Shown here: piece by piece, positions 2,299-50,060 of the stretch | Layout of the letters: each line of letters begins with the position of its first letter | Position numbering within the stretch: position 1 is the stretch's first letter | Origin: Ilex aquifolium | Lineage: Eukaryota > Streptophyta > Magnoliopsida > Aquifoliales > Aquifoliaceae | Assembly: GCA_951799425.1 (NCBI GenBank) | Contig: OX637409.1 | Span: 19,499,460 to 19,563,459, forward strand | DNA: 64,000 bases | Reading direction: 5' to 3' | Made by a program: the position numbers and the translations under genes | Notes under the pieces: model-generated | Told to the model about the DNA's origin: nothing | The model's input: the letters and a program-made list of their open reading frames with translations, nothing else | Database searches by the model: none

Positions 2299-5094
<2,796 letters not shown>

Positions 5095-13460: not shown

Positions 13461-14302
13461 CAGCAGTGTGGATGATTCTCCAATTTTTATTTTATTTTTC
13501 AACGATAAAAGGTCTTCGGGCAACTTCTGCATACTTCGATTAATTTTGTCCTTGATTAAATCAAAGTCAAATCATTCACGTTAGAATTAAAATATTCAGT
13601 CTGATTCCAAAAAATTGTCAAAATTTGAGTTAAAAATATCTGAATTTATAATTTATCTATGTTACAACTAATTCTCTAATTTGCTATTGTAAGTAAAAAA
13701 TATATCAAACTAAAGTTAAACACAAATAATACAATTAATAAGTAATATAAATAAAAAATGGATATTTTCTAATTTTTTTTAACATATTATTTTTATGTCA
13801 TGTCATCGTACACATAAAACTAACACTCATCCACTTTTCCATCTAAAATTAAGTCGCGTGAGTTAGAGGTGAGAGGGATATAAACTTAAGTATAAAATCA
13901 CAGCCCCATGTGATGAGCTTTTCACGAGGAAAACCTCAGTTTCCAGATACAAAATAGATATGAGCCAAATTATTGTCAAATCGTAAAAGTGAAAATGCGC
14001 AGCTGTTCATCTTGAAGATCTACAAAATGTCTTGGATAGTTAAAGAATACAACAATGATTTGTGCACCGGAGATAGCCAGATTATGGTAAGGGCTTTTCT
14101 TTCTCTGTCTCTTTTTTTGTTATATTGACACTGTACATCATTGTTTTTTGTGTTTGTGGGACTTTGATTCTTGGTTTTTTTAATCTTTCTCAAATAGTTG
14201 TTCCCATTTGTTTTTGTCCAAATGGTTCTTGCCATTAGTTTAATGGAAAAAAAAAACATATTGTATTTTGCCTTTTGACTTTTGCGTTGATTATGTGAAT
14301 GC
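13461..14302. other. gene-free AT-rich region
   Basis: No gene is supported. It includes the left arm (13795-13895) of an inverted repeat whose other arm is at 15010-15110. Confidence 0.4.
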
Positions 14303-15110
14303 ATTAGTTGGGGGAAAGGCTATGGTACCGAACGAGGTACCGTACCGAAAGTTACAACAATTTTAGGTTAAGTTCTAATTTTTTTGAAGTGTAAGTTACA
14401 ATTTTTTTGAGGTATAAGTTACAACTTTTAAAAGTCAAGTTATAATTCAAAAAGGAGAAGTTACAACTGCTCAGGGAACGTCCATGATCGATCATGTGTA
14501 TCTGTGATCGATCATGGACCTTTAATCGATCAGAGACTTTATCTGAACAATTGTAACTTCTCCCTTTTGAATCGTAACTTTACCATAAAAATAGTAACCT
14601 TCGGTACAATACCCAAGGCGGTACCATAAACTTTCCCATTAGTTGGATTTGAAAATGATTCTTGTTTTGTTTGTTTGTGGGAGTGTTTTGGGAACTTGTG
14701 TGGACCTATTTTTATATTGGATGTGGGGTTATGGTTTTTCTTGGTTTTTTTCTCTTTGGAGACTTTTTTTTTATTTGCTTTTAAACTTTTTTATACAAGT
14801 GATGATTCCGGATATTTCACAATTAGAATTCATCACAATGAAAAATTTGATAGTTGTGGTGATAAAGTGTATATTGGTGGAAGAGTGAATAGTATTAATA
14901 TGTGTCACTTTGATTAAATTTCTCTCATAGAATTGGACAACATGCTAAAGAATATTAGAATTGGTTATAATCAAACTACCATATTTTATTTTGGCGCCAA
15001 GCATATTGAATTTTACACTTAAGTCCATGTCCGTCCCACCTCTAACTCACGTGACTTAGTTTTAGACGGAAAAGTGGATGGTTGTTAGTTTAAGGTGCAC
15101 AATGATATAA
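13795..15110. repeat. about 100-bp inverted repeat pair around a nested MITE
   Basis: The arm at 13795-13895 ('catccacttttccatctaaa', 'gtgagttagaggtg') is matched in reverse complement at 15010-15110 ('cacctctaactcacgtgac', 'ggaaaagtggatgg'). Identity is roughly 85% by eye. The right arm continues to about 15220 with text typical of plant MITE or MULE ends ('ttgagattaaccctaaa'). The left arm lacks a clear match for that part. The 326-bp MITE at 14312-14637 lies between the arms. Confidence 0.55.
14312..14637. mobile_element. Mutator-type MITE (326 bp) with perfect 9-bp target duplication
   Basis: The left end is GGGAAAGGCTATGGTACCG and the right end, reverse-complemented, is GGGAAAGTTTATGGTACCG. 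The flanks are ATTAGTTGG at 14303-14311 and again at 14638-14646. A 9-bp duplication is the mark of the Mutator superfamily. The inside is a long imperfect palindrome with 'agttacaa' and 'gatcgatcatg' motifs and no coding capacity, so it is non-autonomous. It shares motifs with the large foldback at 44916-48685. Confidence 0.88.
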
Positions 15111-20790: not shown

Positions 20791-20829
20791 AGTATTTACT
20801 TCATGCAAGATAATGACTAACTGTTCTAA

Positions 20830-21305
20830 AATACTGAAGGTGCGCCACTAATCTTCGAGTATTATCCAATTCATGAGCTGCAAAATCAAAGAGAGGTTAG
20901 AGGGACCCCTGGCATTGAGCCAGGGGAGGCCCCTCCGATGCCTAAGTTAGTATTGCGATCAATACGTGAATAGACTAGTGTATAAAGCTAGAAAAATGAA
21001 CAAAGGTGTGTGTGTGGAGCATGGAGCCGAGGTGCTCATGCTTCAGGTCTCCCTACCTTTGGGTCTTCACCCATTTTTATAGAGAAAGTTGAGAGCTACT
21101 TACCGTGGAGAGGTCATACTCCTTGAGTTGATACCTTCTTGAGATATGTGTCTCTGCAGGTATTAAAAATTGTGTTTGACTCCAATTGGTCAATCAGCAA
21201 GGCTGTCAACTCTGAGTTGCCTTAATAAGATAAATCTTGGGTCTTTATTATAATACACCCATGTGATGTGGGGCCCTCTCCATTGATGCAAAATATGGTC
21301 CATCA
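20830..21305 (-). repeat. 3' LTR of outer element
   Basis: It aligns with 35690-36112 over 'actgaaggtg', 'gagtattatccaattcatga', 'gatgcctaag' and 'ttgagataccttctt'-like text. It ends in CA at 21304-21305. On the minus strand a purine tract ('agttggggggcag') at 21306-21319 precedes it. Confidence 0.75.
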
Positions 21306-23589: not shown

Positions 23590-24372
23590 TGCACGGGATA
23601 TTTCCTGCAATCAATGTGAGATAGTGATCGAACTGTTGGCGAACCCTGAAACAACCACAAGGTTAGGAAAAAAAGGGAGCCAGGCACACGCCCGGCTTAT
23701 CCCCTCCGAAGTTTAAGTCAGTAAGGGTGGGAGGATGAAGCTCTATTGAATGTGTTCTGATTCGAGTTTGCGTACCTTTGTTCATTTTTCTGAGGGATAT
23801 TTATACCTGGACTCGTAATGATTGCTCTGACACAGAGGTCATCTCAGCATTTAATGCCCTTCTCAATTATCCATGCGCAATGAGTGATTCCCACCTGGAT
23901 TCCCGTGTCATTAATGCTCGGGGGACGGAACTAGTCCTCGGAGCCACACCGAGGACGTCCAGCTATCTCCGAGTACTCGAGTGCCTATGAACGGCGTCTG
24001 ACACCTACTCCCGAGTAGTCGGCGTCTAGGGGGCAAGCACCCTCTACTTTTGTTCTCGGCGTCTTAGCCATTAATGCATCCACTCATGACTGTCAGTTTG
24101 GGTCTTCGAGGGTGCGGAGACTCATTAAATGCTCTGTCTAAGTCACTCACGTCTCCATAAATGCTGGGTCACATCGCATTAATTGCTGGTGTCAGAAGTT
24201 TATACTCGGCTCCACGAAACCACGCTCCTTCGTCGGCTCTCCTCCTCATTGTCGGCACTGGCTCATTGCTCGGAGTCGGCTCCAATCCTCGGCATCGGCT
24301 CCACGGCTCCATAACGGCTACACCTGTACACGTGTCGCCTTGGGGTCTACTGAGCCGCCTTGAGTCCCTCCA
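23590..24372 (-). repeat. 3' LTR of inner Ty3/gypsy element
   Basis: 783 bp, starting TGCACGGGATATTTCC and ending GAGTCCCTCCA. It matches 33172-33954 at about 98% by eye. On the minus strand the purine tract 'gtgggggctgggggcagt' at 24373-24390 directly precedes it. Confidence 0.93.
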
Positions 24373-24728
24373 ACTGCCCCCAGCCCCCACTCTATTTGCG
24401 GCGTGGGACAGGTGGCGCAAGGAGAGAGGGGGCTTGCCTGTCACGTCTATTAAAGAGGGGCGGTTACTTGCACGTTTTGAGCCGCCCTTTTCAAATACCC
24501 TAATGATGAGTGTCTTCTCGATTCCCGCTCTCTCATCTGCCTATAAATAGGGGAAGTTTTGGCCATTTGAGAACTTTGCAACTTCGAATTCCCTTCAAGC
24601 ATTTAGCTGCCGAGTAATCCTTCCTCTCCTCCCGAGAACTCCCTTGCGAAGAAAATCCTGTAAGTACTCTCTTCATTCTATTTCCCTTTCTTCTTCTACT
24701 CCTTCCATTCTCTTCAGAATCTTTATCC

Positions 24729-26919
24729 ATGGCCAGAAATCGTAGCAGTGAGGTTAGGAGCCCTCTTCCACCAAAAACCCGTAGGTTGAAATAGACCACA
24801 GTAAACGAGGATAATATAGGTGCCTTTAGGGCCAAATACCAAATCCCCGAGAGAGTTTTGACCTTCCCATTCCACCCCTCACAACATAGCAGGGAGCGTA
24901 GGTGTGTAGAGATGATGCCTTTTTACACCAAGGTCATCATGGAAGGCGGCCTAACTTTCCCCCTGCCTCCCCTTGTACTGAAGGTGTTGATGCAGCTCCG
25001 GCTGTTTTCACTTCAGTGTGGGGTGAACTTCTTTAGGATAGTTATGGGCGTAATCGCCCTGAATGCTCGGCTCGGAGTAAACTTAGGAGTAGATGAAATT
25101 TTGTTCTGCTATGACCTAAGACTAGTCGGCGGGGGAAGGTACTACCTCAAGGCCCGGGACACTTCTATGTACCTGGTCACCCACATGCCGGACACTTCTA
25201 TGTACCTTTCTCCCACATGCAGAAGTTGGGAGAAAGGCACTGACCCCGAGTATGACGGATTGTACTGCCCCAAAGTGCCAAGGGATGAAGGTGTGTGTTG
25301 CACTAGTTAAAGCTTGTTCGGCTTATCACTGTCTGCCTTTCTGAACTTGTCTTTCATTTTTGTAGAGGGATACCGGCGTGACGCAGCTCAGCCCTACAGA
25401 TCCCAAGTCAGGTTTGCCGACTTGTTGAAGGTGTGGTCCTCCGAACCGGCCAACGAATACTCTCGAGCAGTGCACGTGCTTCTCGGATACCACCCATCCT
25501 ACAGTCGGTTTTCCCAGATCCCCCCTCCTTTCGATCCCAAACGTTGGGATGATCTCTCTTCATCAGAAGAAGACGCCGAGAGAACCCCTTTCTCCCCCCG
25601 TGCCTTCTTCTCCAACTGAAATATTTAACGTTCCACCAGTCTCTGTTGCTACCATGGAAGCTGCCGCTTCTCGGCGAAGAGCCAGGATCTCGGGATAGGG
25701 AGAACCCCCGAGCGCAGCACCGACCATCCCCTCACCAACCGTGCCTCAACGGGATGCGCCTCCACCTCCTCCGCGTCCTCAGCGATCAGGGGACACAGCC
25801 ATTCCGCTGACTGAACAACAAGTAATTCGCCAAGTCCCTCCTACCGGCGGTCAGCATACGGGTAGGAGGGGTCGGGACCCCGAAGCACCTGAAGAGCGCC
25901 GGCAGAAACGCTGCTTCGACGCCCCGGGCGCAACCACTTCCACCCCTGGAGCGTCTACTTCCACCGAGTGGGTGGCTCAGGCGGAAAGGAGGGAGGGCCA
26001 ACCTATCCTGGACTCAGACTCCATCATTCAGGATAAGGAGGTGGCATTCGCCGTGGCTTCGACCCTCCAGTTTGCGGCCGACATGAGGGTCCATCACGGT
26101 CAATCCGACAATACACTCCTCTTAACCGCTCTCCAGAACAACTTGGTGGTAAGTGTCTAGTTCTAACCCTTATCCCATATACTCGACATTTGCCTAACTC
26201 GTTCTTCTATTGTTTCCCAGGTTTCCCAACAGCAGGGGGTCATCATTGAACGCTTCTGGGAGCACAAGCAGGTGGCGAGGGGCGCCAAAAAGACGATCGA
26301 CTCCCAGGATGCCCACATCAAAGGCATCGAGGCAGTCCTCGCCGACCAGAAGAATCACATTACCAACCTCATCTGCTAACGCGACTCCCTGGACGCCGAA
26401 TTACAGAAGCTAAGGGCGAGTGAGGCTGCGACGATGAAGAAGGTAGAAGAGTACAAGCTGAAAATCGCGGCCGCCGAGGACAAAGCTCTGGACTCCAAGG
26501 GCCTTGTCAGGGAGCTAAACGCCCAAGTGGACTCTTTGACGGCGGAGAAGGCGGGGGAGCCGCAAAGGCTTCAAAGTGAATGCGAAAGGGTGTACTTGGA
26601 AACCCAAGAGCAGATGGTCCCTGTTTTCGAAGAGGCCAAGGTCATCGCTTATCGGCGTGGATGGGTAGATGCCTTGCACGCCGCCATGGTGGACCCAGCT
26701 AATGAACTTTTCCAGAGGCACAGTTCTCTTGCCGGGAATGAAGTCGAGCTACTTCTAGAAGGGCAGCCAGACGCCGATGGGGGTGATGCGGCCGAGGGGA
26801 ACAGTGCAGCCATTACTGTAAGTGATGGTTCTGATGGCCTTTCCCCTATCATCGGCGGCCAAGACCCTAATCTTCCTGCTTCGCCTGTCGAAGAGCTCAC
26901 TGCGCACGAGGCGAGGTGA
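24729..26919 (+). pseudogene. antisense ORF (aORF) of the Tat element, putative gypsy-type transposon domain
   Basis: The frame runs opposite to gag-pol between integrase and the 3' LTR, where Tat elements such as Grande and Retand carry an antisense ORF. The product's role is not established. It starts MARNRSSEVRSPLPP at 24729 and a TAG at 24792 interrupts it. A hydrophobic-aromatic block follows (about 24858-25285, including VDEILFCYDLRL and GGGRYYLKARD) that resembles the 'putative gypsy type transposon' family of plant databases. The likely intron at about 25290-25364 has gtgtgt...tttgtag ends. The intron at 26149-26220 (gtaagt...tttcccag) joins LQNNLV to VSQQQG in frame. The C-terminal part (26221-26919) is a Glu/Lys-rich coiled coil ending at a TGA, with another stop near 26377. 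Other internal stops make it a pseudogene. Confidence 0.68.
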
Positions 26920-27636
26920 ACCCTGTGGCGAGCTCTATTTTTCTTTGGCTTTTCTTTCTCTTTTTTAGGCCATAGGGGACGCAAAGCCCCATTTTGATTT
27001 GTAATGCAATATTTCACCAATTAATGAAACCTTTCTTCATTTCATTTGTGTTCGAACTATGGATGCGATTGATCTCTACGCTGCCGTTTCCTCTTTATAT
27101 GCGTTCCTTCGTTTTCTTTTTCTCTTACTGACTGTCCCCGAGTCATTCGATCTCTGGATCGTGCTAAGTGTTGAATCGGCCCGCCTCAGCCTTTTCCCCC
27201 TAGGGGCCGAGATCCACACTTATTATTGCTTAAGGATTATCACTGCTCAAGGATCATACCACCTTATTTCTAGGAAGCGGAAGTGAAGTTACAACTAGTC
27301 AGTAACAGCCTCCAGAAGTAGCATGAAAGAGAAAACTGAGGCAGTAAGGCTTCACGCCGAAACCATAAAGAGGGAAATTCTCAATAGGTTAAAAACGAGC
27401 AAACCCTTTAACTGCTGATTGTTACACTGCCGCCAACCTCTCCTCAAGGCCAGGACGGTGAGGACTGAGAGCTCGTCTCGTGTTATATTTTTGAGAGTGT
27501 TGCCTCAAGGGTGAGGTCTTATACCCCTCAGGACCATGCCCCTAACGACTGAGAGCTCGTCTCGTGTTATAACATTCCAAGCAGAAACAGGACACTGAAC
27601 TCATTAACAAAAATATCTTTTTAGATTAGATACATT
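26920..27636. other. gap between antisense ORF and integrase end
   Basis: Non-coding part of the Ty3/gypsy element. The phrase 'gactgagagctcgtctcgtg' occurs twice (about 27463 and 27549). Both the aORF from the left and pol from the right must terminate here. Confidence 0.5.
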
Positions 27637-28872
27637 CTAGGGTCGGATTACATCATTGCCATCCATATTCTGTAGCTTGTACGCCCCGGTGCCCCCCACT
27701 GCAATCACTTTGTAGGGGTCTTCCCAATTAGGTCCGAGCTTCCCTTCGACGGGTTCCTGAGCAGCGCCTACCACCTTTCTAAGCACCAAGTCCCCCACTT
27801 TGAAATCTCTTGTTCAGACTTTCTTCTGATGCTGTCTCGACAGTTCCCCTTGATACTTGGCTAATTTTATGGACGCTAGTTCTCTTCTTTCCTCAGCCAA
27901 GTCAAGATCTTTGTCAAGCATCTGGTCGTTATTCCCCAAATCGAATGCTTGACTTCGGATGGTCGGGAGCCCAACCTCCAACGGGATGACGACCTCAACC
28001 CCGTATGTCAAGGCGAACAGCGTTTCCCCTGTTGAAGTTCTCGGCGTAGTTCTATAGGCCCATAGTACGTTGAGTAATTCCTCGGTCCATTTTCCCTTTG
28101 CCCTCTCAAGCCTTTTCTTGATTCCTGCTAACACAGTCTTGTTAGACACTTCTGCTTGTCCATTACTCTGGGGGTAGGTTGGCGTGGAATAATAGTTGCG
28201 TATTCCAAACCCTGAGCAAAATTCTCTGAAAGGACCACTGTTAAACTGAGTGCCGTTGTCCGAGATGATAGTCCTAGGAATCCCAAACCGAGTGATTATG
28301 TTCTGCCACACGAATTTCTTTGTCTCGGCGTCTCGGATGCGGCTCAAGGGCTTGGCTTCAATCCACTTAGTAAAGTAATCAGTGGCTACCAATAAGAACC
28401 TCTTGCCTAAGGGAGCCTTCGGGAGCGGACCCACGATGTCCATTCCCCACTGAGAGAACGGCCAAGGACTGGTCAGCAAATTCAGATCTCTTGCCAGCTG
28501 TCGGATCATAGGAGCAAATTTCTGACATTTGTCGCATTTTCGCACATAACTCTTCGCATCTTTCTGCATATAGGGCCACCAATACCCTTGTGTCATTGCT
28601 CGGTGCGCAAGGGATCTGCCTTCCGTGTGACTTCCACATACGCCCTCATGGATCTCGTAGAGCAGATGTTCCACCTTGTCCTCGGGGACACAAAACAGAT
28701 GGGGACCGGAGAAAGATTTTCTATACAACTGCCGGTCGGCGGATATCCAAAACCTAGGAGCCTTGAGTCTGATCTTTCTGGCTTCTTTGGCATCCTCGGG
28801 GAGCACGCCCTCCGTTAGATAGGCAACAATGGGTTCCATCCAGCCGAGAGTTGACTGTGCTTGCATAGACAA
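27637..28872 (-). pseudogene. integrase region of Tat-lineage pol
   Basis: Integrates the retrotransposon cDNA. The zinc-binding HHCC domain is visible as HEGVCGSH and KCDKCQ. The catalytic core shows the three acidic residues in WGMDIVGPLP, IISDNGTQF and PQSNGQAEVSNKT, so the D,D-35-E site is complete. A TGA at 27814-27816 cuts the frame. The same frame then continues another 58 codons, with FKVGDLVLRKV and PNWEDPYKV of the C-terminal domain, to a natural TAG at 27637-27639. The arginine usual at this point (CGA) explains the TGA by one transition. Upstream it is out of frame with the archaeal RNase H, so there is a frameshift near 28870. Confidence 0.9.
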
Positions 28873-29461
28873 TACTTGCCGGGAACCTGTCTTCTATGCT
28901 TGGCTTTTCCCGGTTTTCAACAATGATACGATGGGTTACCTCTGAAGCCAACGCCGAGGCCAGGCAGGCTAAGGCGTCGACGTGGGTGTTCTGGTCTCTT
29001 GAAATCTGGGAAACTTCCACTTTTCCCAATTTCTCTATCTTTGATTTCGCCTTCTGGCAGTACGCTTTCATCCTGTTGTCCTGGACCTCAAAGTCACCAT
29101 TGATCTGATTCACCACTAGTTGAGAGTCACAGAAGACATGTAGGTGTCTGACTCCAACCGAGTAAGCAATATCGATCCCTGCCAATAGTGCCTCATACTC
29201 GGCTTCGTTATTAGATGCTTTAAATCCCAATCTGATAGCTCGTTCTATTGTGAATCCTTCTGAACTGGCCAGTACTACCCCTACTCCTGCCCCTCTTGCG
29301 TTCGAGGACCCGTCAACATGAAGGCTCCAGCCAACATCAAAAGCGGCAATCTCCGGCGGGGGCTCGGGCGCAGAGAACTCGGCAATGAAATCAGCAAGGA
29401 CCTGGTCCTTAATTGAAGTACGAGGCTTGTACCTTATTTCGAATTCCCCAAGCTCCACAGC
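28754..29461 (-). pseudogene. second, archaeal-type RNase H (aRNH) domain
   Basis: An additional RNase H lying between the Ty3-type RNase H and integrase, a hallmark of plant Tat elements. Active-site regions are visible: HVDGSSNARGAGVGVVL (Asp), NNEAEYEALLAGI (Glu), VFCDSQLVVNQI (Asp) and NTHVDALACLAS (Asp). The reading frame is the same as that of reverse transcriptase but is separated from it by a TAG at 29462-29464, at a point where relatives have tryptophan. It loses frame near 28870 before integrase. Its presence classifies the element. Confidence 0.88.
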
Positions 29462-30892
29462 CTACTTGGCGACTCTACCTGATATGTCGGCTTTCTGAAG
29501 GATGGGCCTGAGAGGGCGATCAGTCAATACCTCTATAGTATGTGCCTGGAAATAGTGTCTGAGTTTCCTCGCCGAGACAACCAGAGCAAGAACTAACTTT
29601 TCCATCGGCAGGTATCTTGTCTCGGTATCGAGCAGGGTCTTACTCACAAAATAGACGGGCCTTTGTGCCCTTTCACACTCCCTTACCAAAGCACCACTGA
29701 CAGCTTCCTCCGAGACAGACAAGTAGAGGTACAACGTTTCCCCTGCCCTCGGGACGGACAGGGTCGGAGGACACTTCAGATATTCTTTAATTCCTTCCAA
29801 TGCCCGGCCACATTCCTCGTCCCAGACCCCTTTTGCCGCCCCCTTTAGCTTGGCAAAAAATGAATTGCACCTATCAGAGGATTTGGAAATAAACCGATGA
29901 AGGGCGGCAAGCATACCGGTCAGCTTCTGGACATCTTTGATAGTCCTGGGCGCTTGGACGTTCTGGACCGCCTGAATCTGCTCGGGATTAGCCTCAATGC
30001 CCCTATGGGTCACCAAGTACCCCAAAAACTTCCCCGAGCTCACTCCGAATGCACACTTCGATGCGTTAAGCTTTAAGCCGTAGCGTCGGAGTATGGCGAA
30101 TGTAGTGCCGAGATCAGTCAGATGATCGGCGCTCTCCTTACTCTTCACCAGCATATCATCGATGTACACCTCCATGGTGACGCTGAGAAGATGCTTGAAC
30201 ATCTTGTTCATTAACCGCTGGTAGGTAGCACCGTCGTTTTTCAATCCAAACGGCATCACCGTGTAGCAATAGATTCCTCGGGGTGTAATGAAGACTGTCT
30301 TCTCTTGATCCGACTCCTCCAGAGCGATTTGGTGATAGCCAGCCCGAGCATCCATGAAGGTGATGCGTTTGTGACCCGCGGTTGCATCCACTACCTGATC
30401 AACTTTGGGAAGTGGGTACCCATCCTTGGGGCACGCCTTATTTAAGTCGGTGAAATCCACGCAAACCCGCCACTTGCCTTCCTTCTTTTTGGCGCACACC
30501 GTGTTAGACAGCCACTCGGGGAACTGGACCTCCCGAATGGTACCTGCCTCTAGCAATTTATCCACCTCTTCGTCCACGGCTTTTGCGTGATGCGGGGCCG
30601 TCCTGCGCGCCTTCTGCTTCACCGGCTTGAAATTCGGATTAGCATGCAGCCGATGGGTCATGACCTCGGGGCTGACCTCTGTCATCTCGGCATGAGTCCA
30701 GGCGAAGACATCGGCATTTCGGCGCAGGAAAGAAGTCATCTCCGCCCTCTCGGCATCATCCAATGAGGACCCTATAAAGAAGTACCTCCCTTCATCATCG
30801 GGACTCAAAAGGATTTTGAGCAGCGATTCGGTGGAACGGTCGGCTGGTTCTACTACGGGCTCGTCTACCCCAGGCCGACCAAACTGTGATTG
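29462..30892 (-). pseudogene. reverse transcriptase and Ty3-type RNase H
   Basis: Copies the element RNA to DNA. The RT motifs appear in order: FKPVKQKARR, WRVCVDFTDLNKACPKD, ITFMDARAGYHQI (first catalytic Asp), VMPFGLKNDGATYQRLM and the active-site YIDDMLVKS. These are followed by the thumb and connection and a degenerate RNase H (RPVYFVSKTLL, KLVLALVVSARKLRHYF, LTDRPL). The frame is open from 30892 to the TAG at 29462-29464. Upstream it continues the gag-protease frame after the TAG at 30893-30895, so gag-pro-pol was a single open frame before the stops arose. Confidence 0.92.
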
Positions 30893-33126
30893 CTATTTGG
30901 CTACAACCTCCTCGGGATCACGGTCTCTCAGGCGGGCACCAAGCCCTGTCTTCATCGCGGCGTAGAAACAGTTTTTTGCTGCCAACTGGTCACCACGGAT
31001 TTCCATGATGCCGCGCGGGGTGGGGAATTTCATTTTTTGATGATAGCTGGAGTGGACTGCTTTCATGGCATGCAGCCACGTCCTCCCCATTATGGCATTG
31101 TACGAGGAGTCAGAGTCTATTACCAAAAACTCCACCGGGATTGAGACGATTGCCGCCCGAACCGTCAAAGTGATCTTGCCGAGTGGAAGAGCACTCGACC
31201 TGTTAAAACCAATGAGGGGTGTCTGGACGGGCTTCAAGTTCTCCCGTGCCAGACCCAACTTTCGGAAGAGGTCGTCATACATTACTTCGGATGAGCTCCC
31301 GGAATCTACTAGGATCCTACTTACATCACTTTTGTCGATCGGCAAAGTGATCACGAGAGCATCATCATGCGGCAGGGCCACTCCCCCTAAGTCAGCGTCG
31401 GAGAAGCTGATAACCTCGTGATCCCGCCGGGGCCTCTTGGAGGATTGCCCTTCCCACTCACCTTCTTCAACCTTCAACGCTTGGGAAACCCTCTGGCGCT
31501 CAGCCCGGAGGACGTTATACGTCAGCCTTTCAACTGTGCAGGCATGTATAACGTTAATTATAGGAACAACCTCTCGAGGCGACTCCGCCCTCTCCTCGAC
31601 TGCCCTCCGACGGGGCCTCTGGTCAATGAACTCCCCGAGGTGGCCATCCCAGACCAATTGCTCGAGGAAGGCCTTGTACGCCTTGCAGTCCTTAGTCATA
31701 TGGCCAAAATTCCTATGGTAGGAACATCTGGCTACTGAGTCCCTCGTGGTCGGGTCTCTTAACATCTTTGGGGGCCATCTAAAATAAGATTGATACCTTA
31801 TCTTTCTCAACATCCTGTAAATCAGTTCTTTAAAAACCGTGTTCACCCCTTGGAAGGACAAGCGGTTTGGTGGCAAAGTGGGTGCACTCCTCCGAGATGG
31901 CTGTTCTCTCTCTCTTTTCCTTGGCTCCGGGGCCCTGTTTTCAGGAACAGTGGTCTCTTCCTCAACTCGCGCGTACTTGTTTATGCGCGCCATCAGGTCC
32001 TTCATATCCTCAGGAACCTTCTTAGTAAGATACCTGTATAGGCCGGTGTCCCGGGACAACCCCAGCCTAAAAGACGCTGCGGCCATTGCTTCCGAGCACG
32101 CGTCCACCTCATTAACCTCCTCCCAGTACCGTATTGCATACTATCGGAGGGATTCCCCGTTTTTCCGCCGAAGTGTCAACAAGGCGCCAATGTCTTTCGG
32201 CCTTCTAGTGCTGGTGATGAACTGCGCCTTGAAGAGCTCGGCCATTTGCCTCCAAGACTTGATGCTCTCCGGGGCCAAACTCTCGTACCACTTCATAGCG
32301 GTATCTCCCAGGCTCATGGGGAAAACTCGGCATAACACCCCCTGGTCGGTGTCATAAATTGACATTAGCTGCTTGTAATGCCGAAGGTGACTCTCAGGAT
32401 CGGTCCTCCCATCATACACCTTGAATCGGGGGACAACGAACCTCTTAGGCATTTCGGTTTCCCTGATTGACCGCACAAAAGGAGAAGAGACCTGCTCATC
32501 ATCTCCCCTGGGCTGCGGTTCTCGGCGCCTGTCGTCAGGGTGCTCGCGGGGGTATCTAGCCTCCCTTGGCCCCCTTGCGGTAGACTCTGTCTGAGATCCC
32601 GTAGACACGGCATCCCGGAAAATCCCACGGCGAAGGTCCCACCACGAAAGGCTTGTACCGCGGCGATCTTCCCTGGACCCTTCGGCGGGCGCATGCTTCC
32701 CCCAATCTCGTGGATTTGTCTATCGGCTGAGTGGCCACGCCGATTCCTCTCGGGGGTGTCAGGCCTCCCCCTCCTGTACTCCCCTCGGCTAGGACTTCGA
32801 CTCTCTGGTTCTCGGGTATGCCAGCTGGCAGTTGCCGACCGTTCGAACTCTCTGAGCCTATGCTGCACCTTTGCGTTGTCTTTTTCAAGTTCCTTGATGT
32901 GTTTCTCCATATGCTTCTCCCCCATCTCCACGATGTCACGAGCTGAGGGGCCTTGCCCCCTGGACCCTGATCCACAGGATATGTTCGCTGTGAAGAACGC
33001 CCCACCCCAGCCGAGTGACCCACTGGGTCTAATTCCGTAACCATCGGGAGGCAGGTAGCCTCCATGTTTCTCATGCGTAAATTCCCTACCCCCTCTCCTT
33101 GGGATCGTGTGTTCACCATGACGCAA
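30893..33126 (-). pseudogene. gag and aspartic protease of Tat element
   Basis: Gag packages the RNA and the protease cuts the polyprotein. The N-terminal part (33126 to about 32.6 kb) is Arg/Ser/Pro-rich with a short coiled coil (EKHMEKHIKELEKDN). It lies in another frame from the rest, so a frameshift sits near 32.62 kb. The gag core follows (FKVYDGRTDPESHLRHY, FPMSLGDTAMKWYESL, FKAQFITSTRRPKDI). A TAG at 32141-32143 replaces a residue just before YAIRYWEEVNE. Further on are a CCHC-like knuckle CSYHRNFGHMTKDC, the protease motif ILVDSGSSSEVM, and NAIMGRTWLH. The frame ends at the TAG at 30893-30895, after which RT continues in the same frame. Confidence 0.88.
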
Positions 33127-33150
33127 CCGCTACAAGGGAAATGTTGTATG

Positions 33151-33168
33151 TTCCCACAGACGGCGCCA
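33151..33168 (-). promoter_or_regulatory. primer-binding site of inner Ty3/gypsy element
   Basis: On the minus strand it reads TGGCGCCGTCTGTGGGAA, beginning three bases inside the 5' LTR. TGG matches the CCA end of a tRNA and the TGGCGCC start is common in plant Ty3/gypsy elements. I cannot assign the tRNA with certainty. Confidence 0.85.
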
Positions 33169-33171
33169 AAT

Positions 33172-33954
33172 TGCACGGGATATTTCCTGCAATCAATGTG
33201 AGATAGCGATCGAACTATTGACGAACCCTGAAACAACCACAAGGTTAGGAAAAAAAGGGAGCCAGGCGCACGCCCGACTTATCCCCTCCGAAGCTTAAGT
33301 CAGTAAGGGTGGGAGGATGAAGCTCTATTGAATGTGTTCTGATTCGAGTTTGCGTACCTTTGTTCATTTTTCTGAGGGATATTTATACCTGGACTCGTAA
33401 TGATTGCTCTGACACAGAGGTCATCTCAGCATTTAATGCCCTTCTCAATTATCCATGCGCAATGAGTGATTCCCACCTGGATTCCCGTGTCATTAATGCT
33501 CGGGGGACGGAACTAGTCCTCGGAGCCACGCCGAGGACGTCCAGCTATCTCCGAGTACTTGAGTGCCTATGAACGGCGTCTGACACCTACTCCCGAGTAG
33601 TCGGCGTCTAGGGGGCCAGCACCCCCTACTTTTGTTCTCGGCGTCTTAGCCATTAATGCATCCACTCATGACTGTCAGTTTGGGTCTTCGAGGGTGCAGA
33701 GGCTCATTAAATGCTCTGTCTAAGTCACTCACGTCTCCATAAATGCTGGGTCACATCGCATTAATTGCTGGTGTCAGAAGTTTATACTCGGCTCCACGAA
33801 ACCACGCTCCTTCGTCGGCTCTCCTCCTCGTTGTCGGCACTGGCTCATTGCTCGGAGTCGGCTCCAATCCTCGGCATCGGCTCCACGGCTCCATAACGGC
33901 TACACCTGTACACTTGTCGCCTTGGGGTCTGCTGAGCCGCCTTGAGTCCCTCCA
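33172..33954 (-). repeat. 5' LTR of inner Ty3/gypsy element
   Basis: 783 bp, same length as the left copy. Differences are almost all transitions. It contains 'gggatatttatacctgga', a TATA-like stretch. It ends CTCCA at 33954, followed by the target duplication GTTGG. Confidence 0.93.
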
Positions 33955-34232: not shown

Positions 34233-35254
34233 TGTAAGAGGTAAAAAATGAGAATACCTCCTACTGGAATGATAGATTGTTAATTCAGATAGTGTTTCTC
34301 TGAATTTGGCCTCCTATTTTCCTTCCTACAAAACGAACAAACTGCCTAAGATCGAAGTGCTTCGATCGAAGGCACTCCAATGCTTAAGTCAGTAATGAAA
34401 TTCAATAAGATGCAAGAAGACTGAGAGATTTCAGCGTACCTTTCACCCAGACTCATTGTTCATTTTATAGGCTGTTACCTCATTAGGGTTTCCGAGGTTT
34501 TGGGTTCAAGGTGGCACACCTTCCTTTCATTCAGTGATTCAGTTTGGGAAGTCGCTGATATTTCTCCACCAATTCCTTCTAATCTCTACAATTTCGTTGA
34601 TTTGCTTATCTGAAAGTCGAAGTTGTAGGCGCATCTCTATCTTTATGTATATCTTTTCAAACAGCTCGGCTATAATGATAAACGAACACCTTCAATGTTT
34701 GCCGAACTAATTGATCAACTCGGCTTGGTACAAGCTGAGCTCTTCAAGTATTTTACCGAACTCATTAGTCAGTTCGGCTAGGTTCATCTGATTTGAGCAG
34801 GTGATGTCTTCGTCACGTGCCCCTTCTTGTCAACCTCACGTGGGTTCATTTAATACCATTTAATGTCATTACACGTGTAACAATGGGAGCCATCCCCTTA
34901 GAGATTAGAAGGAATTGCTGGAGAAATATCAGCGACTTCCCAAACTGAATCACTGAATGAAAGGAAGGTGTGCCACCTTGAACCCAAAACCTCGGAAACC
35001 CTAATGAGGTAACAGCCTATAAAATGAACAATGAGCCTGGGTGAAAGGTACGCTGAAATCTCCCAGTCTTCTTGTATCTTATTGAATTCCATTACTGACT
35101 TAAGCATCGGAGTGCCTTCGATCGAAGCACTTCGATCTTAGGCAGTTTGTTCGTTTTGCAGGAAGGAAAATAGGAGGCCAAATTCAGAGAAACACTATCT
35201 GAATTAACAATCTATCATTCCAGTAGGAGGTATTCTCATTTTTTACCTCTTACA
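34233..35254. mobile_element. 1.02-kb LTR-like foldback element
   Basis: It begins TGTAAGAGGTAAAAAATGAG and ends with the exact inverse, CTCATTTTTTACCTCTTACA, so both ends are TG/CA. Flanks are CTTAC (34228-34232) and CTGAC (35255-35259), four of five bases alike, as expected of a retrotransposon target site. Arms at 34233-34588 and 34900-35254 are inverted copies of each other at about 97% by eye. They contain the LTR-like phrase 'atgcttaagtcagtaatg' and 'tgttcattttataggctgtt'. The 311-bp spacer is unrelated. It could be two LTR pieces fused head to head or a solo LTR of an unusual palindromic family. Confidence 0.75.
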
Positions 35255-35655: not shown

Positions 35656-36112
35656 TGTGTAGGCAAAGATTCGCACAATCACTAAAATACTGAAGGTGTG
35701 TCCCTAATTTTCGAGTATTATCCAATTCATGAGCTGCAAAATCAGAGAGAGGTTAGAGGGACCACGACGTTGAGCCAAGGGAGGCCCCTCAGATGCCTAA
35801 GTCAGTATTGCGACCAATACGTAAATAGACTAGTGTATAAAACTAGAAAAATGAACAAAAGGTTGTGTGTGGAGCATGGAGTCGAGGTGCTCATACTTCA
35901 GGCCTCCATACCTTTGGGTCTTCACCCATCTTTATCGAGAAAGTGAAGAGCTACTTACTGTGAAGATGTCATACTCCTTGAGTTGATACCTTCTTGAGAT
36001 ATGTGTCTCTGCAGGTATTAAAAATTGTGCTCGACTCCAATTGTCAATCAACAAGGCTGTCAGCTCTGAGTTGTCTTGAGAAGATAAATCTTGGGTCTTT
36101 ATTATGATATAC
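35656..36112 (-). repeat. 5' LTR of outer element, truncated
   Basis: It starts TGTGTAGGCAAAGATTCGC and follows the left LTR closely from 'ctaaaatactgaagg' to 'cttgggtctttattat'. It then breaks off at 36112, about 50 bp short of the left copy's end. Confidence 0.75.
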
Positions 36113-36262
36113 CCAGGGCCGGGCCAATAGTATGAAAAAAAAAGCATGGGTTTTAGGCTCCAAATTTTTAAAAGGCCCCATAAATTTAGATCGACAAAAA
36201 CTAACTAAAAATATTTGATTTTTTTAAAAGGATAAAGTTGAATATGTGTTATAATGTTTTTA
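36113..36262. mobile_element. hAT-like terminus fragment
   Basis: Starts 'cagggccgggccaatag' and continues with a poly-A stretch and 'ggctccaaatttttaaaagg'. Such GC-rich starts are common at plant hAT ends. No matching right end was found, so this is a fragment at best. Confidence 0.3.
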
Positions 36263-36516
36263 GGGAAAGTCTATGGTACTGAAAACTGCTAGTTATTATT
36301 TTTTATAATAAAGTTATAACTTTGATAGGATAATTTATAATTACTCAAGAGAAGGTTATGATCGATTACAACACTCATAATCGATTATGAATTTTTTGTA
36401 TCGATCTCAATCTTCTATGATCGATTATGTCAATTAAAATTATAACTTACATCCCAAAAAAATATAATATAATTTTAAAATATTATAATTTTCGGTACGA
36501 TACGCTACCCTTTCAC
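36263..36516. mobile_element. Mutator-type MITE, 254 bp
   Basis: The left end is GGGAAAGTCTATGGTACTG. The right end, reverse-complemented, is GTGAAAGGGTAGCGTATCG followed by TACCG. The flanks ATGTTTTTA (36254-36262) and TTGTTTTTA (36517-36525) agree in eight of nine bases. The interior has inverted 'gatcgattatg' motifs as in the 326-bp MITE. It is more diverged and so probably older. Confidence 0.72.
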
Positions 36517-43958: not shown

Positions 43959-44693
43959 CTATCCATTGGTTCGATTTTCAACAATTGGTTGATCTTCACG
44001 ACATTGCTCTGGACTCCATCTAGTGACCGTGTGCTCTTTGACACTGTAACTCTCCAAACATGATGGAGAGATAGCCCTATGCCCATTTTTATTGACAGTA
44101 AGAATTAACAATGTCTTTGCAACACTGCCACAAAGTCTAATAGTGCAGTGAATATCATACCAGACCCTCAAACGACCATTTGCACTATCATCTCCCTCTG
44201 ATAAAACAAGCACGGCATATTCAGAATGCACCAGAGCTGGATGGTGACGGTACGCAACAAATTCCACACCATACTGGGATCCTGACCTAACCACCCAATT
44301 CTTCATCCGAAGATGACAATAGGCCTTGAAAAATTCAGGAAAGGATTCTTTCTTGGACGTCATGTATTTCCATACTTCTTCATCACTTCTTATGCAATTA
44401 TCCTCACCTACAATTGTGATACATTTTATGGAGTAACATAGGTAAAAAGCTTCCTCCAAAGTAAATTGAAACCATTGTTTATCCTTCTCAGCTGTGATTA
44501 TAGGTCGACCAAAACATGCACGATTGAGAAATTCGGTTTGTTCTGTATCTGCTTCAAGGATTACGCTATTGCCTGAGAGTAAACCTTGAGACTTTGACAA
44601 AATTAGAGAAGACTGAAGTTGAGAAATGATCTTTGAAATGGGATCTGCAAGAGCTTTACCTTTTGCGCCCTTGCCTTTCCATCTTGGTGCCAT
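43959..44693 (-). CDS. SEN2: tRNA-splicing endonuclease subunit Sen2
   Basis: Catalytic subunit of the heterotetrameric enzyme that cuts the 5' splice site of intron-containing pre-tRNAs. It is a single coding exon of 735 nt, giving 244 aa. I chose the second ATG (44693, MAPRWKGKG) because plant Sen2 proteins start this way; the upstream ATG at 44705 adds only four residues. The nuclease fold is at about 115-205. The catalytic triad is complete: Tyr148 in VEFVAYRHHP, His156 in ALVHSEYAVL and Lys193 in CGSVAKTLL. The C-terminus keeps VTRWSPEQCRED. The segment 43600-43958 is probably 3' UTR. A large foldback element starts 223 bp upstream of the start codon, so its promoter or leader is interrupted or replaced. 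Confidence 0.94.
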   Translation of the reverse strand: MAPRWKGKGAKGKALADPISKIISQLQSSLILSKSQGLLSGNSVILEADTEQTEFLNRACFGRPIITAEKDKQWFQFTLEEAFYLCYSIKCITIVGEDNCIRSDEEVWKYMTSKKESFPEFFKAYCHLRMKNWVVRSGSQYGVEFVAYRHHPALVHSEYAVLVLSEGDDSANGRLRVWYDIHCTIRLCGSVAKTLLILTVNKNGHRAISPSCLESYSVKEHTVTRWSPEQCREDQPIVENRTNG

Positions 44694-44906: not shown

Positions 44907-44915
44907 TATAAGACA

Positions 44916-45716
44916 GGAGCCGACTACGGTACAGCCAAAGGAATTTTCGGTACCATACCGAAAATTCTTTTTTACAACATCGGTATAATTTACTAAATTT
45001 ATGGATTATTTACAACTTCAATGACATTGAAATGACACCGGACAAGACATTGAAATGACAAGACAAGACATAAAAAAAAACCGTCATTATTGACTTGAGG
45101 GCAAAATTACAACATTAGTGGGAAGTTTACGACTTCAATGGATTCATTACTACATTTATGGTAATATTTACAACTATTGGGGAGAAGCATTTACTAAAGC
45201 AATTGTAGTTTTTACAATATTTAATGGTCCATGATCGATTATGGCATATGTTTGATCGATCATGACACTCATTTACCACTTTAATGGATCATTTACCACT
45301 TTTATGGTAATATTTACAACTATTGGGGAGAAGCATTTACTAAAACAATGGTAGTTTTTACAATATTTAATGGTCCATGATCGATCATGGACCATGTTTG
45401 ATCGATCAATATGTAAGGTGAGTTGTAAGTAATGGATAATCCAATAATATATACAAATTTAATGGATCATTTACCATTTTTATGGTAGTTTTTACCATTA
45501 TTGGGGAGAAGTATTTACTAAAGCAATGGTAATTTTTACAATATTTAATGGTCCAAGATCGATCATGGCATATGTTTGATCGAACAATATGTAAGGTGAG
45601 TTGTAAGGAATGGATAATCCAATAATATATACAAATTTAATGGATCATTTACCACTTTTATGATACAAAACTCGAATTTGGGGATATTTGATCGATCAAA
45701 TCTTCTCAGTACTTTT
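44916..45716. repeat. left inverted arm of the foldback element
   Basis: 801 bp. After a unique outer 200 bp it holds about three subrepeats containing 'ggggagaagcatttactaaa', 'tttacaatatttaatggtcc' and 'gatcgatcatg'. It ends at 'cttctcagtactttt', the mirror of the right arm's start. Confidence 0.88.
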
Positions 45717-45949
45717 CATTCTGATTCACAATAGAAATAACATGATCGATCAAATATATGTTTGATCGATCGAATTTACTTACCAACGATTTGATGGATC
45801 AATATATCTTTCTGATCGATCAAATTCAATTAAAACTGACAAATTAATCCAATTAACATGTAATTTCATCAAATCAACACCAAATTAACAACAAATTAAC
45901 ATTCAACTCATCAAATTAGAATTCAATTCATAAAATTAACACCAAATTA

Positions 45950-47861
45950 ACACTCAATTTCATTTAATTAACATTCAATTTTTTTTTAATAAGCATTTAA
46001 TTCACGAAATTAACATTCAAATTCAACTACTTAACATTAAATTAACCAAATCAACTTTAAAATTTCATTCAATTAACACCCAATTCATCAAATTAACATT
46101 CAAATTATCAAATTAACATTCAGAATTATCAAATTGACATTCAATTTTATCAAATTAACATTTAATTTATCAAATTAACAATCAATTTCATCTAATTAAC
46201 ATTCAATTTTTTCTAATAAGTATTTAATTCACGAAATTAACATTCAAATTCAACTACTTAACATTAAATTAACCAAATCAACTTTAAAATTTCATTCAAT
46301 TAACACCCAATTCATCAAATTAACATTCAAATTATCAAATTAACATTCAGAATTATCAAATTGACATTCAATTTTATCAAATTAACATTTAATTTATCAA
46401 ATTAACCATCAATTTCATCTAATTAACATTCAATTTTTTTCTAATAAGCATTTAATTCACGAAATTAACATTCAAATTCAACTACTTAACATTAAATTAA
46501 CCAAATCAACTTTAAAATTTCATTCAATTAACACCCAATTCATCAAATTAACATTCAAATTATCAAATTAACATTCAGAATTATCAAATTGACATTCAAT
46601 TTTATCAAATTAACATTTAATTTATCAAATTAACAATCAATTTCATCTAATTAACATTCAATTTTTTCTAATAAGCATTTAATTCACGAAATTAACATTC
46701 AAATTCAACTACTTAACATTAAATTAACCAAATCAACTTTAAAATTTCATTCAATTAACACCCAATTCATCAAATTAACATTCAAATTATCAAATTAACA
46801 TTCAGAATTATCAAATTGACATTCAATTTTATCAAATTAACATTTAATTTATCAAATTAACAATCAATTTCATCTAATTAACATTCAAATTTTTCTAATA
46901 AGCATTTAATTCACGAAATTAACATTCAAATTCAACTACTTAACATTAAATTAACCAAATCAACTTCAAAATTTCATTCAATTAACACCCAATTCATCAA
47001 ATTAACATTCAAATTATCAAATTAACATTCAGAATTATCAAATTGACATTCAATTTTATCAAATTAACATTTAATTTATCAAATTAACATTTAATTTATC
47101 AAATTAACAATCAATTTCATCTAATTAACATTCAATTTTTTCTAATAAGCATTTAATTCACGAAATTAACATTCAAATTCAACTACTTAACATTAAATTA
47201 ACCAAATCAACTTTAAAATTTCATTCAATTAACACTCAATTCATCAAATTAACATTCAAATTATCAAATTAACATTCAGAATTATCAAATTGACATTCAA
47301 TTTTATCAAATTAACATTTAATTAACATTTAATTTATCAAATTAATAATCAATTTCATCTAATTAACATTCAATTTTTTCTAATAAGCATTTAATTCACG
47401 AAATTAACATTCAAATTCAACTACTTAACATTAAATTAACCAAATCAACTTTAAAATTTCATTCAATTAACACCCAATTCATCAAATTAACATTCAAATT
47501 ATCAAATTAACATTCAGAATTATCAAATTGACATTCAATTTTATCAAATTAACATTTAATTTATCAAATTAACAATCAATTTCATCTAATTAACATTCAT
47601 TTTTTTCTAATAAGCATTTAATTCACGAAATTAACATTCAAATTCAACTACTTAACATTAAATTAACCAAATCAACTTTAAAATTTCATTCAATTAACAC
47701 CCAATTCATCAAATTAACATTCAAATTATCAAATTAACATTCATAATTATCAAATTGACATTCAATTTTATTAAATTAACATGTAATTAACATTTAATTT
47801 ATCAAATTAACAATCAATTTCATCCAATTAACATTCAATTTTTTCTAATAAGCATTTAATA
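45950..47861. repeat. 227-bp tandem array, about eight units
   Basis: The marker 'ttcacgaaattaacattcaa' begins at 46001, 46228, 46456, 46683, 46910, 47157, 47395 and 47622. Most units are 227-228 bp, and two are longer (247 and 238) through small internal duplications. Units are nearly identical. Inside each, a shorter degenerate phrase 'tcaaattaacattcaa' recurs, so the unit itself arose from about 15-20-bp repeats. The last unit breaks off at the right arm. Confidence 0.93.
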
Positions 47862-48685
47862 AAAAGTACTGAGAAGATTTGATCGATCAAATAAGGTTTT
47901 GATCGATCAAATATCCCCAAATTCGAGTTTTGTATCATAAAAGTGGTAAATGATCCATTAAATTTGTATATATTATTGGATTATCCATTCCTTACAACTC
48001 ACCTTACATATTGATCGATCAAACATATGCCATGATCGATCATGGACCATTAAATATTGTAAAAACTACCATTGCTTTAGTAAATACTTCTCCCCAATAG
48101 TGGTAAAAACTACCATAAAAGTGGTAAATGATCCATTAAATTTGTATATATTATTGGATTATCCATTCCTTACAACTCACCTTACATAATGATCGATCAA
48201 ACATGGTCCATGATCGATCATGGACCATTAAATATTGTAAAAACTATCATTGCTTTAGTAAGTGCTTCTCCCCAATAGTTGTAAATATTACCATAAAAGT
48301 GGTAAATGATCCATTAAAGTGGTAAATGAGTGTCATGATCGATCAAACATATGTCATGATCGATTATGGACCATTAAATATTGTAAAAACTACTATTGCT
48401 TTAGTAAATGCTTCTCCTCAATAGTTGTAAATATTAACATAAATGTAGTAATAAATCCATTGAAGTCGTAAACTTCCCACTAATGTTGTAATTTTGCCCT
48501 CAAGTCAATAATGACGATTTTTTTTTATGTCTTGTCTTGTCATTTCAATGTCTTGTCCGGTGTCATTTCAATGTCATTGAAGTTGTAAATAATCCATAAA
48601 TTTAGTAAATTATACCATTAATATTGTAAAAAGGAATTTTCGGTATGGTACCGAAAATTCCTTTGGTTGTACCGTAGTCGGGTCC
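47862..48685. repeat. right inverted arm of the foldback element
   Basis: 824 bp, the reverse complement of the left arm, with an extra 'aggttttgatcgatcaaat' near its inner end. It ends at 'ccgtagtcgggtcc' before the target duplication. Confidence 0.88.
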
Positions 48686-48694
48686 TATAAGACA

Positions 48695-50060
48695 TAAGTT
48701 GAAGGGGAATAGCATGAACACTGTAGTTTAGCCAAAAAGAGCCAACATGACCGTTGCATTTGACTACATATATAATGCTCTACAAAGGTCTAAAGAACAG
48801 CTAATAGTGCAGGGAAAGAAGAAGAAAGGAGAGAGAGAGAGAGAGAGAGCGCGGGGGGGGGGGGGGGGGAAGGAGAAGAGGAGAAAAGGCAAAATTGGTT
48901 ATCACAACATCATTTATGCAAAATTAACCTCTGAAATAGTTATTGTTTGCTATAATCTAAAAAGATATCATAAATACAAGAATCCATCAATGATAGATCA
49001 CTCTTCATTTGTATCCTCAGTAAGGTCCCACATTTATCCCCATACATTCTCTAAGGTTTGATCCACTCTATTATTATCACCACATGATAAAACATGATCC
49101 ATGAAATTTTTTCTCTCCAGCATTCCTTCCCATTCGGCCACCCCCCATCCCTCTCGCCTCTCTCTCTTCAACCTACATTACCCCCTACTTTCTTGCTCCC
49201 TCTTTTTTCTCTCTTCTCATCTTTCTTTCTTCGCCTTAACAGGTGCCTGTAGGACACCCATTAACCGAATCTATAAACAAACACATCGATCTTTTTGTGA
49301 CCCAACTGAAAATCATACTAATTTTTTCTATACAGTGATGTGAAATCCAGGAGGGTGGCTAAAATTATCTGGCAAGTAAGAAAATGAACAAAATATAACA
49401 ATTGTCTATGGACGAGTTGAGTTGAGTACTTACCTATAAACTGGATGTTATTCTCGTTCTTCGGAGATTACAGTAGTAATACACTGTATGCCTTCTCAAC
49501 TGCAGAATAAATTCCCCTTTTGTTTCTTTGAAAACAAAATTGGCATGGAACTATAAAAGACTTATTTGCAGTAAACACTTATCAATACATATGTGGGTAG
49601 TGGTGGTGGCGGCTGTGGCTGCGGCTGCGGTGGCGGAGAAGTGGGTGGCCAACGAGAGGATAATTTTGGGGCTGAGGAATTTGGTGAAGAGAGTTGAAAC
49701 CCTAGTGGTGGCTCTTCTGAGAGCCCCTGATGAATCCTTAGTACCGTTTTCATAGTTTTCAACAGAATAGTTCCAATAGCAATCAAAAAAAAAAAAAACA
49801 AATTGGGATCCAGATCATCATCTTCACTATTTTTTCACGTAAGTGGGTCGATCCTAAAAATTAAAATTTAAATACATATTATTCTGGATGAGTGTTGAAC
49901 GAGTGAGTCTTACTAAAAAAATTAATGAGATTTACTCATCTAAACGATAATATGCATTTGAATTATAACTTTTTGAATTTTGTAGCATTACTCTTATTTA
50001 TAAATGGACTCTTCATACATTAGATGATGGAATTGTGTAAATGTGTAATACGAAAAAAAA
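48695..50060. other. intergenic with GA/G tract and purine-pyrimidine stretches
   Basis: A (GA)n tract runs into about 18 G residues at 48831-48870. A CT-rich stretch lies at 49140-49230. The open frames at 49101-49343 and 49528-49755 have skewed composition and no recognisable domain. I do not support a gene here, although the original Sen2 promoter may lie at the left end. Confidence 0.4.

What the first reader, a model, noticed from the sequence alone, without database searches (positions are those of the whole stretch)
44907..48694. A 3.77-kb foldback element with a perfect 9-bp target duplication and a satellite core
Seen directly: TATAAGACA on both sides, inverted arms of about 0.8 kb, and an internal array of 227-bp units. 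No coding frame is present. A 9-bp duplication is the mark of Mutator-superfamily transposition. MULE relatives with long inverted ends are known, but a Mutator-type foldback built from hairpin arms around a satellite array is unusual and I know no named family with these ends (GGASCCGACTACGGTAC). The near-identity of the arms suggests recent activity.
Basis: partly seen in the sequence, partly recalled or inferred. Interest (0 to 1): 0.87.

Follow-up and report, generated by a model that had tools for sequence, protein, structure and literature searches.

The report
Foldback jumping gene in holly DNA
This is a 3.8-kb piece of mobile plant DNA, in a holly genome, made of two mirror-image arms around a block of short repeats; it carries no gene, was most likely moved by an enzyme made elsewhere, and fits an already known kind of transposon.

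Summary
A 3,770-bp element (44916-48685) lies between perfect 9-bp repeats. Its arms (804 and 825 bp) are 97.1% complementary, its core is an array of 227-bp units 98.7-99.6% alike, and no stop-free stretch exceeds 76 codons. The host is a holly (Ilex): the adjacent Sen2 gene is 97% identical to that of I. paraguariensis. The element lies 222 bp upstream of that gene's ATG.

ATGATCGAT has 18 matches in the three elements and none in the other 59,650 bases.

Best explanation: a non-autonomous, Mutator-type (MULE) foldback element moved in trans. This kind is known: Tm1, MuTAnT and, partly from recall, FARE. Tetris is a foldback with ~220-bp tandem units. The array is the least ordinary part and probably a secondary expansion. 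Not shown: other genomic copies, an autonomous partner, an empty site. The host-genome search did not complete (9 tries), so the superfamily assignment rests on duplication length and anatomy.

The parts
44907..44915 (.). left target-site duplication TATAAGACA
44916..45719 (+). left inverted arm, 804 bp, modular (146/178-bp direct repeats, TGATCGATCA palindromes)
44936..44970 (+). imperfect palindrome 20 bases in from the left end (16-bp stem, 3-base loop in the fold); mirrored in the right end
   Evidence: fold of both 70-base ends
45720..45942 (+). spacer with further GATCGATC motifs and decayed ~21-bp repeats; no counterpart on the right side
45943..47860 (+). tandem array, period 227 bp, built on a ~20-21-bp subrepeat; 1.7% G against 16.8% C on this strand
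47861..48685 (-). right inverted arm, 825 bp, 97.1% complementary to the left arm
48686..48694 (.). right target-site duplication TATAAGACA
14312..14637 (+). second, short related element (326 bp), ends GGGAAAGGCTATGGTACCG / GGGAAAGTTTATGGTACCG, flanked by ATTAGTTGG (14303-14311 and 14638-14646)
36263..36516 (+). third, more decayed related element (254 bp), ends GGGAAAGTCTATGGTACTG / GTGAAAGGGTAGCGTATCG, flanks ATGTTTTTA / TTGTTTTTA (8 of 9 alike)
43959..44693 (-). neighbouring gene: tRNA-splicing endonuclease subunit Sen2 (244 aa); its ATG is 222 bp from the element

Best explanation
A non-autonomous DNA transposon of the Mutator (MULE) type with a foldback shape, in a holly genome. Inferred mechanism: a transposase encoded by an autonomous MULE elsewhere recognises the terminal ~17 bp and probably repeated sites in the modular arms, cuts the element out and joins it to a 9-bp staggered cut, giving the TATAAGACA duplication. 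Shown by sequence: the duplication, the ends, the arms, the array, the lack of coding frames, and two short relatives in the same window. Inferred: the transposase type and movement in trans. The 227-bp array is most likely a later tandem expansion of an older ~21-bp minisatellite inside the element: its units are more alike (98.7-99.6%) than the arms (97.1%). Any transcript through the element would form a ~0.8-kb double-stranded hairpin, a likely substrate for small-RNA silencing (inferred).
For: Perfect 9-bp duplication exactly at the ends of the inverted arms (identical random 9-mers 3.8e-5). Second element in the same window with a perfect 9-bp duplication and a third with 8 of 9 (random pairs with 8 or more of 9: 2.8e-4). 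The end pattern GGGAAAGNCTATGGTACCG, up to 3 mismatches, has 3 matches in the window, all at ends of the two short elements; 0 in 100 shuffles. The ends of the long and short elements share 11 of 17 bases at the same offset (left ends), a level reached by 3.1e-4 of the window's 17-mers. Shared modules: GATCGATC 15 sites in the long element, 2 in the second, 0 elsewhere, expected 0.48; GGTCCATGATCGAT 6, 1, 0 and 0 elsewhere; ATGATCGAT 13, 3, 2 and 0 elsewhere (matches on both strands). MULE duplications are 8-11 bp, MULEs tend to insert near genes (PMC6446971 passages), and Mutator is the largest TIR superfamily in three hollies, 5.27-6.76% of the genome (PMC11435385 passages). The element lies 222 bp upstream of the Sen2 ATG.
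Against: No transposase with these ends was seen: no Pfam transposase domain in the 10 of 24 ORFs scanned; the rest of the genome was not searched. Other superfamilies also make 8-9-bp duplications. The arms exceed the 14-500-bp TIR range stated in PMC6446971 (one row of its table gives 640 bp). Kinship with the short elements is partial: BLAST of the element against the rest of the window gave only two 36-38-bp hits, both in the second element, E = 4e-4, and missed the third; the third element's right end matches the long element at only 7 of 17; it has no TGATCGATCA, GGTACC or GGRGAAG; and the TTAYVAC and GGRGAAG modules are common outside the elements (54 and 24 matches). The third element failed the 9-bp and 8-bp scans and was seen by eye.
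Confidence: 0.82

Rival explanations
1. A foldback transposon of another superfamily (P/Galileo-like, hAT-like, or Rehavkus-like), with the same anatomy but a different transposase.
For: Foldback shape is not tied to one transposase: the Tm1 paper says so and names Galileo. Rehavkus has 9-bp duplications and a minisatellite. Tetris has 8-10-bp duplications and ~220-bp repeats with no transposase found.
Against: Rehavkus is listed for arthropods and annelids only. hAT and P duplications are 8 bp (recalled). Two of the three elements here have exactly 9.
Confidence: 0.12
2. The 227-bp array is a working part of the element, for example repeated protein-binding sites or a spacer under selection, and not an incidental expansion.
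For: The PMC4079207 passages report binding sites in Galileo's internal tandem repeats and suggest more repeats may raise transposition. The units are 98.7-99.6% alike.
Against: The repeated motif typical of the family (GATCGATC) lies in the arms and spacer, with 0 sites inside 45943-47860 (positions listed). The two short relatives have no array and still carry duplications. The array is on one side only: it abuts the right arm directly and is separated from the left arm by 223 bp.
Confidence: 0.12
3. Not a transposon: an inverted duplication made in place, with the 9-bp repeat a coincidence.
For: Only one long copy could be examined and no empty site was seen.
Against: The 9-bp repeat falls exactly where the inverted arms end; chance 3.8e-5 for this pair; a second element with related ends has its own perfect 9-bp repeat.
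Confidence: 0.02
4. An assembly artefact: a false hairpin join or a wrongly resolved tandem array.
For: Hairpins and arrays are hard to assemble; raw reads were not available.
Against: The arms differ at 23 of 802 columns and by a ~20-bp insertion, so one is not a copy of the other; the duplications and both flanks are clean.
Confidence: 0.03

Closest known systems
FARE (foldback elements of Arabidopsis, Windsor and Waddell 2000)
   Same: Plant foldback with long modular inverted arms and palindromic ends, counted among MULEs (as cited in PMC4486113, passages). Recalled from its abstract, paper not held: 9-bp duplications, arms of about 550 bp, short members made of arms only and large members with a MULE-like transposase.
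   Different: No sequence comparison with FARE was made here. The arms here are 0.8 kb. I recall no 227-bp array core in FARE.
MuTAnT (Medicago truncatula, PMC4486113)
   Same: Plant MULE with long arms folding into a hairpin, mostly non-autonomous copies (passages).
   Different: 200 bp to 1.6 kb, inserted in TA microsatellites; no such target here.
Tm1 (Meloidogyne, PMC3169594)
   Same: Foldback-type composite arms with tandem modules, 8-10-bp duplications in 45 of 53 elements, non-coding and transposase-coding members (passages).
   Different: Nematode; Phantom-type MULE transposase; ~14-bp repeats sit in the arms; different end motifs.
Tetris (Drosophila virilis, PMC4079207)
   Same: Non-autonomous foldback with ~220-bp AT-rich tandem units and 8-10-bp duplications; short relative DAIBAM shares its ends (passages).
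   Different: Animal; the units lie within both inverted repeats, not in a one-sided core; superfamily unsettled; its units also form free satellite arrays, not testable here.
Rehavkus
   Same: 9-bp duplication, minisatellite before the 3' TIR (PMC6446971 passages).
   Different: Listed for arthropods and annelids; carries a PHD-finger transposase; arms 26-400 bp.

Membership tests
Mutator (MULE) superfamily | 8-11-bp target-site duplication | tested here: met
   9 bp perfect for this element and the second; 8 of 9 for the third
Mutator (MULE) superfamily | terminal inverted repeats | tested here: met
   804/825-bp arms, 97.1% complementary; longer than the 14-500 bp stated in PMC6446971
Mutator (MULE) superfamily | MULE transposase in the element or in a partner with the same ends | not tested
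   none in the element (longest stop-free stretch 76 codons); partner search unanswered 9 times
Plant foldback MULEs (FARE-like) | long, modular inverted arms able to form a hairpin | tested here: met
   146/178-bp modules; 786 of 804 left-arm bases pair with the right arm
Plant foldback MULEs (FARE-like) | imperfect palindromes at the ends (FARE feature, partly recalled) | tested here: met
   16-bp stem with 3-base loop in both 70-base ends; no shuffle control was run for it
Plant foldback MULEs (FARE-like) | sequence similarity to FARE | not testable with these tools
   no plant genome or repeat library held; FARE paper not held
Rehavkus | PHD-finger transposase; animal host | tested here: not met
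   no coding frame; plant host

The most novel reading that the evidence does not exclude
The element is a satellite nursery in a plant: a foldback MULE whose G-poor 21-bp minisatellite has grown into a homogenised 227-bp higher-order array that can be spread by transposition and could seed free satellite arrays elsewhere in holly genomes, as described for Tetris in Drosophila.
Probability: 0.12. Interest if true: 0.55.

Novelty: new member of a known kind. Interest (0 to 1): 0.3.

Why it matters
It gives a clean set of ends, arms and modules for naming a family of foldback MULEs in hollies, where Mutator elements take up 5-7% of the genome. A long hairpin next to the Sen2 promoter region could make small RNAs or alter that gene. 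If the array also occurs outside the element, it would be a plant case of a satellite born inside a foldback transposon. On the present evidence it is otherwise ordinary.

Tried and rejected
The host-genome search was tried nine times with the same request and never answered, so copy number, the spread of duplications, the autonomous partner and the array's presence elsewhere stay open. A scan of viral contigs for the arm's outer 22 bases found 0 matches, which says little, as that collection is not a plant one. Pfam on 10 of the 24 listed ORFs showed Gypsy pol and gag, Sen2 and a tetraspanin and no transposase of a DNA transposon; the other 14 ORFs and the six-frame remainder were not scanned. 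I considered dating the insertion from the arms (23 of 802, 2.9%) and dropped it: the arms may have differed at insertion or been converted, and the mutation rate of holly is not known to me. CTAYGGTAC alone is too common to define the family: 21 matches with up to 1 mismatch against 10.9 expected (largest shuffle 19); of its 5 exact matches one, at 12510, lies outside the three elements, and I saw no element there in the 341 bases read. One extra hit of the 10-bp scan (34361-35126) lies inside a longer 98% inverted pair and was set aside. The shuffles behind the hairpin and kinship scores kept base content only, so they are lenient controls; the scores exceeded 1000 of 1000 or 500 of 500 shuffles.

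Full report
What is there. The finding's coordinates are right. TATAAGACA stands at 44907-44915 and 48686-48694, and exactly between the two lies a 3,770-bp element whose ends read GGAGCCGACTACGGTAC and GGACCCGACTACGGTAC inward. The arms (804 and 825 bp) match at 779 of 802 ungapped columns (97.1%); the main length difference is a ~20-bp insertion carrying one more GATCGATC motif in the right arm. The arms are modular, with direct repeats of 146 and 178 bp. Each end holds an imperfect palindrome, about 20 bases in, that folds as a 16-bp stem with a 3-base loop. Between the arms lie a 223-bp spacer and a 1,918-bp array of period 227 (8.3 copies). Self-comparison peaks at 20-21 bp and its multiples and at 227 bp, so the unit is a higher-order repeat of about eleven ~20.6-bp subunits. 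The seven full units are 98.7-99.6% alike, the left edge is more decayed (about 91% and then 73%), and the strand has 1.7% G against 16.8% C. The longest stop-free stretch is 76 codons.

Host. The neighbouring gene on the minus strand (43959-44693) is Sen2, a tRNA-splicing endonuclease subunit (Pfam PF01974 and PF02778). Its best match is Ilex paraguariensis at 97% over the whole length; the other 119 listed rows (of 517 matches) are at most 76%. The window is therefore from a holly; the species is not settled. The element starts 222 bp upstream of the ATG; the true transcription start is not known.

Relatives in the same window. A scan for exact 9-bp repeats bordering inverted ends found this element, a second one at 14312-14637, and two hits inside this element's own arms; the control averaged 0.5. 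The second element, 326 bp, is flanked by ATTAGTTGG and ends in GGGAAAGGCTATGGTACCG / GGGAAAGTTTATGGTACCG. A third, 254 bp, at 36263-36516, was seen by eye from a cluster of ATCGAT motifs; its duplication has 8 of 9 bases alike and its right end is decayed. The end pattern of the short elements with up to 3 mismatches occurs 3 times in the window, all at their ends, against 0 in 100 shuffles. Left ends of the long and short elements agree at 11 of 17 bases in register; the third element's right end only at 7 of 17.

Shared modules. GATCGATC: 17 sites in the window, 15 in the long element, 2 in the second, none elsewhere, 0.48 expected. On both strands GGTCCATGATCGAT has 6, 1 and 0 matches in the three elements and 0 elsewhere, and ATGATCGAT 13, 3, 2 and 0. 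Other proposed modules are weaker: TTAYVAC has 54 and GGRGAAG 24 matches outside, GGTACC 6 outside and none in the third element. BLAST of the long element against the rest of the window gave two short hits, both in the second element. I take the three as related by ends and modules; that one enzyme moves them is an inference.

How it works. Shown: duplication, ends, arms, array, no coding capacity, relatives. Inferred: a transposase made elsewhere recognises the ends and perhaps the repeated palindromic modules, and inserts the element at a 9-bp staggered cut. In plants a 9-bp duplication with long inverted arms points to the Mutator superfamily (8-11 bp, PMC6446971 passages), and Mutator is the largest TIR superfamily in three hollies (5.27-6.76%, PMC11435385 passages). 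No transposase with these ends was found, because the genome search did not complete. The array units are more alike than the arms, which fits growth or homogenisation of the array after the arms diverged; this is an inference.

What is known. Passages, not whole papers, were read. Tm1 is a Mutator/foldback family with 8-10-bp duplications in 45 of 53 elements (PMC3169594). MuTAnT is a plant foldback MULE, and its authors cite FARE as a foldback with long palindromic ends classed as a MULE (PMC4486113). Tetris is a foldback with ~220-bp tandem units that also form satellite arrays (PMC4079207). Rehavkus combines 9-bp duplications and a minisatellite in animals (PMC6446971). The main text of the holly repeat paper has no occurrence of 'foldback', 'MULE' or 'satellite'. 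Seven searches of an open-access library listed no plant foldback MULE with a satellite core; most subscription papers are not in it, so this is no proof of novelty.

Verdict. A real transposon and a new member of a known kind (foldback MULE), with a one-sided tandem array as its least ordinary trait. Interest 0.3.

Noticed in passing
23590-33954: A Ty3/Gypsy LTR retrotransposon on the minus strand: two 783-bp direct repeats 98% alike (23590-24372, 33172-33954) around ORFs with integrase, reverse transcriptase and gag domains.
   Followed up: partly
34233-35254: A second hairpin: 356-bp inverted arms, 98% alike, with about 310 bp between them, just outside the Gypsy element; no duplication was established.
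   Followed up: partly
13800-15108: A 99-bp inverted pair (84% alike) frames the second short element, which may be nested in an older element.
   Followed up: no
20826-21261 and 35682-36115: Direct repeats 91% alike on either side of the Gypsy element, perhaps the LTRs of an older element it inserted into.
   Followed up: no
4096-4884: A 313-bp tandem repeat, 2.5 copies, 93% matches.
   Followed up: no
48830-48869: An AG microsatellite followed by a run of about 18 G, 150 bp downstream of the element.
   Followed up: no
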